NCBI GenBank assembly: GCA_013214945.1
Contig: JABSRT010000001.1
Location: 1-64,000, forward strand
Direction: 5' to 3'
Source of the DNA: Gammaproteobacteria bacterium
GTDB lineage: Bacteria > Pseudomonadota > Gammaproteobacteria > Enterobacterales > Psychrobiaceae
DNA: 64,000 bases
Shown: piece after piece, positions 25,486 to 57,545 of the stretch
Numbering within the stretch: the stretch's first letter is position 1
How the letters are laid out: each line of letters begins with the position of its first letter
Translations under genes and position numbers: made by a program
The notes under the pieces: model-generated
What the model saw: the letters and a program-made list of their open reading frames with translations, nothing else
What the model was told of the DNA's origin: nothing
Database searches by the model: none

Positions 25486-25804
25486 TGTTATTCCTCTTTA
25501 AGTTTATCGAAAAATTACAAGTTACCTTGCGACGATCAAATCTTGTTAACCTTGGTGCACGAGAATATTTAAAGCAAATTCGCTCAAGATATCTACAAGT
25601 CTAGTTTTTGAAATAACAAAAATACAGCAATGGCAGGAAATTTATCGACTACGAGGAGTTCGTTGGTTATGGAGCAAATGTGTGGGTGAATTTAGTCTGA
25701 GATATTAACGTGTTCTCTGGGCAGTAATTCATACCTATTAGGAATGAGAGCAACACAGGATTAAAGGGTTTTATCAAGCACAGGTGATCACCTAATTAAT
25801 GGGA
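25486..25804. other. 319-bp intergenic region
   Basis: Upstream sequence of the exported-protein gene, then unannotated DNA up to the MITE-like element. No gene or clear structure was seen. Confidence 0.4.
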
Positions 25805-26113
25805 TTGGCTCTGTTCACCTTAAATGTAGCTAGCTTCGTAATACATTGAAAGTGTTGGTGTTTGATAAAGCAAGCTTGTGCAGTATGTTCTTACATGGAT
25901 GTAAGATATTAGGGCAATGCATTTAGGCCATGGACGGGCGTAATTAGAGTAACGCAGGAGCGGTTACCGAGGAGCTATTGCCTAGATGCTGCGCCAGAGC
26001 CTCGAACGTAGGTATAACCCTAATGCCAGCGGCATGAGGAAGTCCGCCGAAGTAGAGATGGATTTACGGCAACGTGCTGTTCAAATGGCAACACTTTAGT
26101 AAAACAGAGTCAA
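25805..26113 (-). mobile_element. MITE-like element, copy 1 (309 bp, intact ends)
   Basis: Left end TTGGCTCTGTT and right end AACAGAGTCAA are inverted repeats (10 of 11 bases; about 17 of 22 when extended). The element is flanked by the 5-bp direct repeat TGGGA (25800-25804 and 26114-26118). It has no coding capacity. Read on the minus strand it shares long blocks with 42955-43204 and with about 57326-57537, including CGGCGGACTTCCTCATGCCG, TACGTTCGAGGCT, CAAGCTTGCTTTATCAAACA and a CTTACATCCATGTAAG palindrome. These are hallmarks of a non-autonomous transposon; the mobilising transposase is not in this window. Confidence 0.8.
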
Positions 26114-26146
26114 TGGGATTGGTATCAGACCAACTAGTTAGACAAA

Positions 26147-26185
26147 CACCCTAAGGTTAACGCTCGTTGCACTAACCTTAGGGTG
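26147..26185 (-). terminator. 13-bp stem-loop, terminator for the 26245 gene
   Basis: CACCCTAAGGTTA pairs perfectly with TAACCTTAGGGTG over a 13-base loop. On the minus strand it is followed by TTTGTC. It is placed between the MITE-like element and the minus-strand gene. Confidence 0.7.
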
Positions 26186-26244
26186 TCGTTGAAAAGTGAA
26201 ACCAGACAATGAAAACGGGATTATCGCTGTGTGATGTTCAGAAA

Positions 26245-42954: not shown

Positions 42955-43204
42955 TTGGCTCTGTTGTACTAACGTGTTGCTATGTGAGCAGCAAGTCGGT
43001 GTAAATCCATCACTACATCGGCGGACTTCCTCATGCCGCTGGCATGAAGTTTCTATCTACGTTCGAGGCTAGGGGGCAGCATTGATGCTGCTCAAGCTTG
43101 CTTTATCAAACATCAAACATCAAACATCAACATCAATACCTACACCAAGACCGACACTTTCAATCAATTGTGAAGCCCGCTGCATTTAAGGTCAACATAG
43201 CCCA
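42955..43204 (+). mobile_element. MITE-like element, copy 2 (250 bp, with expanded internal repeat)
   Basis: Begins TTGGCTCTGTT and ends AACATAGCCCA, inverted repeats matching at 9 of 11 bases. It is flanked by TACAA on the left (42950-42954) and TACCA on the right (43205-43209), a 4-of-5 match to a target duplication. It aligns with the minus strand of copy 1 from the left terminus through CGGCGGACTTCCTCATGCCG and TACGTTCGAGGCT. It lacks about 100 bases of the middle and rejoins at CAAGCTTGCTTTATCAAACA. At that point an ATCAAAC heptamer is repeated three times (43105-43125). Confidence 0.75.
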
Positions 43205-56068: not shown

Positions 56069-57340
56069 ATGACTCATAAATCGTCAAAAATTGGCCGCTG
56101 GCAAGGTGCCGGTTTAATGGCTACAACGCTATTGGGCACAGGGGTGTTTATTTTACCGCAAATGACTATCGCTATTGCCGGTCAGGGCGCTTTTATCGCG
56201 TGGTTACTACTGACGCTTGCCATCATACCTATTACTTTAGTTTTTGGTCGTTTGGCGGCAACATTTCCTCATGCGGCAGGACCGGCGTATTTTGTCGAGC
56301 AAGCCTTTGGCCCGATTGCTGGTCGCACGATTGGACTGATATTTTTATTGGTGGTGCCGCTGGGTGCATCGGCCGCAATTTTGCTGACATTCCAGTTTGT
56401 TGAGCCGCTAGTAACACTGAGTCCGTTGGCTAAACTAGCCTGTGAACTAGCGGTATTAGCAGGTTTGTTTGTGGTTAACTATCGTGGCATTAAGACATCG
56501 GCGACGCTGCAATTTGTCTTAACGCTGACCATAGTCGCGGTTATTATGCTGCTGTTCGGCGCTAGCGGTATTCAACCTGAGTTAGTCAATTCAGATCCGT
56601 TAGTACAGGCTGCAGATCCCGCCAAATTTAGCTTAATCATGTCAGCTGCCAGCATCGCCTTTTGGAGTTTTCTCGGGGTTGAAGCGATGACTCATTTAGC
56701 CAGTGACTTTCGGAAACCCAAACAAGATTTACTGCCCGCGATGATGATTGGTACTTTATTGGTGGGTTTAGTTTATTTGGCGTGTACTTGGTTGCTGTTG
56801 GCGATACCCAGTGTTACTGAGTTGGCAATGATCGGGGTTTTTGATCGTTTGCTTGGTGGTTATGGCGCACAGGTCATCGGTATATTGGGTATTGCAGCTG
56901 GTCTTGGCGCTGTTAACGTCTATGCCGCCAGTGTATCGCGGTTAGTTTGGAGTTTTAGCAATGACGGGGTCTTACCACGGTATTTTTCTAACCTCAATCA
57001 ACATGACGAACCGGCAAGGGCATTAGGCACAGTGTTGCTGGCAATGGCGATTATTCTGTCAGTAACTTATCTCAGCGGACAAGATATTGAAGTACTGATT
57101 GCTTGGTGCAACGGCGTTTTTGTGGTGATTTATTTAGCCACGATGTTGGCGGCGTGTAAGTTACTTAGTCATAAAAATCGACCTTTGATCATTTGTGGCA
57201 GTGTATTTTGTGTCGCATTGATCTGGAGCTTGGGCGAACGGATGGGTTATGTATTGCTGCTTATTTCAGTGGTGATGCCGCTATTATGGTGGCAACTTAA
57301 CCGCCAACGAGCAGCGATTAATTGTAACAACTCGTTGTAA
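56069..57340 (+). CDS. yjeH: APC-family amino-acid transporter, YjeH-like methionine/branched-chain exporter
   Basis: The 423-residue protein has about twelve helices, beginning IGRWQGAGLMATTLLGTGVFILPQMTIAIAGQGAF, the unwound helix-1 GTGVF motif of APC proteins and a close match to YjeH. FPHAAGPAYFVEQAFG and AFWSFLGVEAMTHLASDFRKPK are other family landmarks. It probably exports Met, Leu, Ile and Val. The last codons (NNSL and stop) seem to lie inside sequence related to the MITE-like element downstream. Confidence 0.88.
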   Translation: MTHKSSKIGRWQGAGLMATTLLGTGVFILPQMTIAIAGQGAFIAWLLLTLAIIPITLVFGRLAATFPHAAGPAYFVEQAFGPIAGRTIGLIFLLVVPLGASAAILLTFQFVEPLVTLSPLAKLACELAVLAGLFVVNYRGIKTSATLQFVLTLTIVAVIMLLFGASGIQPELVNSDPLVQAADPAKFSLIMSAASIAFWSFLGVEAMTHLASDFRKPKQDLLPAMMIGTLLVGLVYLACTWLLLAIPSVTELAMIGVFDRLLGGYGAQVIGILGIAAGLGAVNVYAASVSRLVWSFSNDGVLPRYFSNLNQHDEPARALGTVLLAMAIILSVTYLSGQDIEVLIAWCNGVFVVIYLATMLAACKLLSHKNRPLIICGSVFCVALIWSLGERMGYVLLLISVVMPLLWWQLNRQRAAINCNNSL

Positions 57341-57537
57341 AGCCATCGGTACTTCGGCGGACGTCCTGATGCCTACGTTCACTACTTAAGCCGAGTATTT
57401 AGGCAATAGCGCCTCGGTAATTGCTGCTGGATTGCTCAAGATATGCTTACATCGATGTAAGAACATCTTGAGCAAGCTTACTTTATCCAACACCAACACC
57501 AACACCAACACCAACACCAACACCAACACTATCAATG
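57326..57537 (+). mobile_element. MITE-like element, copy 3 (ends degraded, expanded CCAACA array)
   Basis: From about 57326 the sequence aligns with copies 1 and 2 (TACTTCGGCGGACGTCCTGATGCC, TACGTTC, GGCAATAGCGCCTCGGTAA, then CAAGCTTACTTTATCCAACA). The palindrome CTTACATCGATGTAAG lies inside a longer near-perfect stem (57434-57472). At the site where copy 1 has a single CAACACC, this copy has seven CCAACA hexamers (57487-57528). Neither terminal inverted repeat is intact. It overlaps the last codons of the yjeH-like gene. Confidence 0.7.
57487..57528. repeat. 6-bp tandem repeat CCAACA x7 within MITE-like copy 3
   Basis: Seven exact hexamers between TTTAT and CTATCAATG. It occupies the same position as the ATCAAAC array in copy 2, so the site is a recurrent point of repeat expansion. 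Confidence 0.95.
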
Positions 57538-57545
57538 GTTAAAAG

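What the first reader, a model, noticed from the sequence alone, without database searches (positions are those of the whole stretch)
25805..26113. New MITE-like element family with 5-bp target duplication (copy 1)
The 309-bp element has inverted ends TTGGCTCTGTT/AACAGAGTCAA and an exact 5-bp flanking duplication TGGGA, carries no gene, and is related to two other intergenic stretches in this window (42955-43204 and about 57326-57537). Terminal repeats, the duplication and multiple copies together show a non-autonomous mobile element, not just shared regulatory DNA. I cannot assign it to a known IS family from the termini.
Basis: seen in the sequence. Interest (0 to 1): 0.75.

Follow-up and report, generated by a model that had tools for sequence, protein, structure and literature searches.

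The report
Orphan MITE family with nested hairpins
The stretch is a small gene-less jumping DNA element present in a few dozen copies in this bacterium; its ends match those of IS1595-type jumping genes that the genome itself no longer seems to carry, which makes it a well-proven but ordinary kind of genomic parasite with an unusual patchwork interior.

Summary
The window copy is a MITE. The element proper is 25807-26111 (305 bp), with imperfect ~26-bp TIRs (GGCTCTGTT...). The target duplication is 9 bp, AATGGGATT, not 5 bp. Genome search found 55 matching pieces in the same genome, and both TIRs recur genome-wide (46 sites, 0 in the reversed-pattern control). Ten copies have exact 9-bp duplications. 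Targets follow a palindrome, YTAATNNNATTAR. Insertion is shown base-precisely: the window copy interrupts the end of another repeat family (B), and more than a dozen other copies of B in the same genome read straight through with a single AATGGGATT. A second site is occupied here and unoccupied in at least four congeners.

The ends match IS1595-family insertion sequences: 22/24 to a Psychromonas IS end, 14-20/24 to others. The genome has no detectable IS1595, IS1 or IS903-type transposase, and those IS1595 elements duplicate 8 bp, not 9. So it behaves like an IS1595-mobilised orphan MITE, but formal membership is not met.

The extra length over the 159-bp core is inserted hairpin modules. One, ~48 nt, has conserved loops and covarying stems, nests inside itself, and occurs in an unrelated repeat and other genera: the most unusual part. 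New member of a known kind.

The parts
25807..26111 (+). MITE proper (305 bp), window copy 1
   Evidence: TIRs, 9-bp TSD, 55 BLAST pieces in own genome, related empty sites
25798..25806 (.). left copy of 9-bp target duplication AATGGGATT
   Evidence: single copy in empty sites
26112..26120 (.). right copy of 9-bp target duplication AATGGGATT
   Evidence: single copy in empty sites
25807..25832 (+). left TIR GGCTCTGTTCACCTTAAATGTAGCTA
   Evidence: 18/26 identical to the right TIR in this copy, 19/26 in the family consensus
26086..26111 (-). right TIR (read on minus strand GACTCTGTTTTACTAAAGTGTTGCCA)
   Evidence: family consensus GGCTCTGTTGTACTAAAGTGTTGC is 22/24 to a Psychromonas IS1595 end
25888..25984 (+). 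inserted hairpin module M (97 bp), absent from the 159-bp core form
   Evidence: comparison with core copies; stand-alone and nested copies elsewhere, covariation
25921..25969 (+). second module M nested in the hairpin-2 loop of the first (between GC and AGGAGC)
   Evidence: reading
26003..26057 (+). second inserted hairpin module (CGAACGTAGG...CCAGCGGCATGAGG...GTAGAG)
   Evidence: present in the 208-, 246- and 305-bp forms, absent from the 159-bp core
25723..25806 (+). left part of host repeat family B, interrupted by the MITE
   Evidence: 81-95% identical uninterrupted copies elsewhere in the genome span the junction
26121..26125 (+). right end of host repeat B (GGTAT)
42957..43202 (-). second family member in the window (246 bp), decayed TSD
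57326..57537 (-). TIR-less fragment of the family with an expanded hexamer run

Best explanation
It is a type II MITE: a gene-less element with ~26-bp imperfect TIRs beginning GG. A transposase of the IS1595/IS1 clade supplied in trans recognised the TIRs, moved the element and joined it across a 9-bp staggered cut in a palindromic A+T-rich target (YTAATNNNATTAR), giving AANNNNNTT direct repeats. Shown: mobility (empty sites), TIRs, multi-copy distribution, target palindrome. Strongly supported but partly inferred: the 9-bp (rather than 7- or 8-bp) reading. Inferred: the IS1595-clade enzyme, since none was found in this genome; the family therefore looks like an orphan that amplified in the past. 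Length variation (39 to about 430 bp) comes from internal deletions of a 159-bp core and from insertion of hairpin modules; the window copy is core plus two such modules.
For: Copies. TSDs: 10 exact 9-bp and 7 with one mismatch; AGACGAATT on both sides of C25:70665 excludes a 5-bp duplication, and the target palindrome is centred on the middle base of the nine. Precise related empty sites: more than a dozen repeat-B copies read ...TTAATTAATGGGATTGGTAT without the element. Unoccupied orthologous interval for the C17:35356 copy in G004, G002, G008 and G007, and for C4:174284 in G002. Ends: Psychromonas SP041 (G266) IS end GGCTCTGTTGTACTTAAGTGTTGT is 22/24 to the MITE right end; the same kind of IS carries an intact 307-aa transposase hitting DDE_Tnp_IS1595 (5.6e-16) and NF033547 IS1595 (2.5e-48); IS1595 elements in Alteromonas (ISAma5), Shewanella, Vibrio, Aeromonas, Marinobacter and a congener (L150) have GG-starting ends of the same type with 14-20/24 matches. 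MITEs with the same GGCTCTGTT ends exist in other genera (L135, L145).
Against: The IS1595 elements measured here duplicate 8 bp, as do the GGCTCTGTT MITEs of other genera (L135 exact, L145 7/8), against 9 bp in this family. No autonomous partner with these exact ends was found in the genome or genus: PF12762 gives 0 hits in the genome, and the three hits in congeners have other ends. The outer two positions of the 9-bp duplication are nearly invariant, so their own excess agreement is only marginal (P 0.07-0.08).
Confidence: 0.8

Rival explanations
1. The MITE was moved by an IS903-type (IS5 family) transposase: IS903 ends start GGCTTTGTTG and it makes 9-bp duplications (recalled from general knowledge).
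For: 9-bp TSD and the outer GGCTCTGTTG fit.
Against: The inner TIR (ACTAAAGTGTTGC) matches IS1595 ends and not the IS903 inner end as recalled; PF13737 gives no hit in any of 10 genus genomes, though that control rang nowhere and is weak; the three PF01609 hits in the genome lack such TIRs.
Confidence: 0.1
2. The MITE was moved by a true IS1-family element (mostly 9-bp duplications, from general knowledge), the sister group of IS1595.
For: 9-bp TSD; the Psychromonas transposase carries an IS1/IS1595-type zinc-binding N-terminus and weakly hits the IS1 model.
Against: PF03400 gives no hit in the genome while the control rings in E. coli; IS1 ends (GGTGATGCTGCC...), as recalled, match less well.
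Confidence: 0.08
3. Shared regulatory or terminator DNA that diverged vertically, not mobile.
For: Copies are all intergenic, often between convergent genes, and fold better than shuffles (z -2.1 to -2.9).
Against: Base-precise related empty sites, target duplications at unrelated loci, unoccupied orthologous interval in congeners.
Confidence: 0.02

Closest known systems
IS1595-family insertion sequences (ISAma5, ISMsa1, Psychromonas SP041 IS)
   Same: Terminal GG and GGCTCTGTTGTACTTAAGTGTTG-type TIRs, A+T-rich targets
   Different: They encode a transposase and duplicate 8 bp; this element has no gene and duplicates 9 bp
Eukaryotic Merlin transposons, relatives of the IS1016 group (PMC8101967)
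   Same: Terminal GG; 8- or 9-bp duplications are both reported
   Different: Eukaryotic and transposase-encoding
Coxiella QMITE1 and Geobacter Chunjie MITEs (review PMC10969869)
   Same: Dozens of intergenic copies, graded sizes (QMITE1 39-400 bp), conserved ends
   Different: Different ends; the nested covarying hairpin modules seen here are not described in the passages read
GTAG-tagged REPs (PMC3733652), as parallel for module M only
   Same: Short hairpin repeats, GTAG or TTAG before the second hairpin, intergenic
   Different: Two hairpins, constant loops with freely varying stems, nested inside its own loop and inside MITEs; no RAYT link tested

Membership tests
Bacterial MITE | Short, no transposase gene | tested here: met
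   305 bp, longest stop-free stretch 47 codons
Bacterial MITE | Terminal inverted repeats | tested here: met
   9 bp perfect and 19/26 overall in the consensus; 46 versus 0 TIR hits
Bacterial MITE | Target site duplication | tested here: met
   10 exact 9-bp duplications
Bacterial MITE | Multiple dispersed copies and empty sites | tested here: met
IS1595-derived MITE | TIRs like those of IS1595 elements | tested here: met
   14-22 of 24 identical
IS1595-derived MITE | 8-bp target duplication | tested here: not met
   9 bp here; 8 bp in the IS1595 elements examined
IS1595-derived MITE | Active partner transposase in the host | tested here: not met
   PF12762 absent from own genome; the partner may have been lost or lie outside this assembly
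IS1595-derived MITE | Mobilised by an IS1595 transposase | not testable with these tools
   needs a transposition assay
IS903-type MITE | IS903-like inner TIR and transposase in the genus | tested here: inconclusive
   PF13737 search rang nowhere, controls included
IS1-derived MITE | IS1 transposase in the genome | tested here: not met
   PF03400: none, control rings

The most novel reading that the evidence does not exclude
The ~48-nt module M carried inside the window copy is itself a mobile, structure-recognised element: two hairpins with fixed loops (TGGA and GCAGGAGCA) and freely covarying stems, which inserts into the loops of other hairpins, including its own, in unrelated repeat families and across several families of one order.
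Probability: 0.3. Interest if true: 0.6.

Novelty: new member of a known kind. Interest (0 to 1): 0.36.

Why it matters
It is a cleanly documented orphan MITE family with base-precise empty sites, a palindromic target and a duplication one base longer than that of its apparent relatives, so it offers a test of how the IS1595/IS1 clade sets its cut spacing. The nested hairpin modules suggest that repeats in these genomes grow by insertion into hairpin loops.

Tried and rejected
5-bp TSD: rejected because copies whose target departs from AA..TT show the same departure on both sides (C25:70665 AGACGAATT). IS903 as partner: first idea, dropped on the inner TIR and the absence of PF13737, although that search's control rang nowhere. 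IS1: no PF03400. The three PF01609 transposases of the genome have no matching TIR. IS1595 genes in congeners (L149, L150, L151) have other ends. No copies in plasmids, phages or viral contigs; no IS1595 relative of the Psychromonas enzyme in viral contigs. Rfam gives nothing inside the element. 39-bp copies as separately mobile minimal elements: not claimed, because a CTGTTC direct repeat explains recurrent in-place deletion; the 55-bp pair (C26, C17) shares a junction with only 2 bp of homology at two loci with different duplications, so that form probably did move. The organism could not be named.

Full report
Observation. The termini, the flanking repeat and the lack of a gene are as described. 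The sequence is repeated through the genome: 55 BLAST pieces, the best full-length or near full-length relatives at 70-90% identity. The TIR pattern occurs at 46 places and its reversed control at none.

Boundaries. In nearly every copy the supposed end TT/AA lies against a target AA/TT, so five-, seven- and nine-base readings give the same letters. Copies whose target departs from the consensus decide: C25:70665 has AGACGAATT on both sides, C4:174284 ends in TC on both sides, C11:150575 begins with GA on both sides. Ten copies have nine identical bases and seven more have eight of nine. Left-right agreement exceeds shuffles at positions 2-8 and falls to background immediately outside the nine. 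Positions 1 and 9 are almost invariant and only marginal on their own. The target is a palindrome, YTAATNNNATTAR, centred on the middle base of the nine, which fits a nine-base stagger and not an eight-base one. The element therefore runs 25807-26111.

Proof of insertion. Joining the window flanks with one AATGGGATT gives a sequence found uninterrupted at more than a dozen other places in the same genome, e.g. C42 at 88% and C17:86086 at 92%, each reading ...TCACTTAATTAATGGGATTGGTAT. These are copies of another repeat, B: about 165 bp, TA-flanked, with ATACCAAT...ATTGGTAT ends. The window element landed in the end of one copy of B. For the C17:35356 copy the same two convergent genes lie next to each other in G004, G002, G008 and G007 without it (G003 has an unrelated ~40 bp there); for C4:174284 the same is true in G002. 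Those intergenic spacers have diverged too far for a base-by-base empty site.

Anatomy. The commonest form is 159 bp (consensus; best copies 93-97% identical to it). The 305-bp window copy is this core plus a 97-bp insert at 25888-25984 and a 55-bp insert at 26003-26057 (by comparison of copies). Two copies are 55 bp and share one deletion junction but sit at different sites with different duplications. Two are 39 bp, explained by deletion between CTGTTC repeats. The review PMC10969869 gives 39-400 bp for Coxiella QMITE1, so such sizes are not unprecedented. A 435-bp copy (C31:11784) seems to carry a nested foreign repeat. No copy interrupts an ORF of 100 codons or more, and many lie between convergent genes. 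Single-strand folding is moderately better than shuffles (z -2.1 to -2.9), as expected for an element with inverted ends.

Who moves it. Searching the order with the TIR pattern led to Psychromonas-group genomes; G266 carries a contig of the same length as Psychromonas sp. SP041 contig NZ_CBRF02000002.1 (262,917 bases) with the same match. There, ~1-kb elements have ends such as GGCTCTGTTGTACTTAAGTGTTGT, 22/24 to the MITE right end, and one related copy with GGCTATGTTGT ends has an intact 307-aa transposase assigned to IS1595 by Pfam and NCBIfam. Named or annotated IS1595 elements on plasmids and one in a congener have matching GG ends with 14-20 of 24 bases, and mostly exact 8-bp duplications. 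Similar MITEs in other genera also show 8 bp. The window's genome has no PF12762, PF03400 or PF13737 hit (the PF13737 control was silent). PMC8101967 states that IS1595 members usually have 8-bp duplications and that the related Merlin elements have 8 or 9. I conclude that it works like an IS1595-mobilised MITE, but one expected feature, the duplication length, differs and the partner is missing; I do not file it as a confirmed IS1595 derivative.

Module M. The 97-bp insert is built from a unit of about 48 nt: hairpin with loop TGGA, linker with TTAG or GTAG, hairpin with loop GCAGGAGCA. In 24 instances the loops stay and the stems change together: stem 1, 130 of 144 cells paired versus 98 on average in shuffles (maximum 111); stem 2, 116 versus 104 (maximum 112). 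Instances were picked with at least four stem-1 pairs and some are closely related, so the stem-1 figure is inflated. The unit occurs alone in other genera, inside repeat B of congeners, and nested in its own hairpin-2 loop in the window copy and in L058. In the MITE it sits inside the core hairpin GCAGCA-TGGA-TGCTGC. Rfam has no match.

Verdict. A real, well-proven orphan MITE family; the kind is known. What is out of the ordinary is the 9-bp duplication beside 8-bp relatives and the modular, nested hairpin interior.

Noticed in passing
window 25888-25984; L058, L059-L064, L067-L070, L082: Two-hairpin module of about 48 nt with conserved loops and covarying stems, nested in itself, in this MITE and in unrelated repeat B, and alone in other genera; not in Rfam.
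   Followed up: partly
window 25723-25806 and 26121-26125; L224-L234: Second, TA-flanked ~165-bp repeat family B (TTATACCAATTACATTAAA...TTAATTAATGGGATTGGTATTA) with a dozen or more copies in the genome; other MITE copies also sit at its ends (C19:94241, C2:114794, C19:47979).
   Followed up: partly
window 26146-26186: Perfect 14-bp inverted repeat ACACCCTAAGGTTA/TAACCTTAGGGTGT with a 13-nt loop just downstream of the element, possibly a terminator.
   Followed up: no
window 43100-43150 and 57428-57540: Hexamer-like runs (CAACAC, CATCAAA) expanded inside the decayed copies.
   Followed up: no
L086 (C31:11784-12218): 435-bp copy carries what looks like a nested third repeat with ACCAATTCCG...CGGAATTGGT ends.
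   Followed up: no
L145, L135: Short gene-less elements with the same GGCTCTGTT ends but 8-bp duplications in other families of the order.
   Followed up: partly
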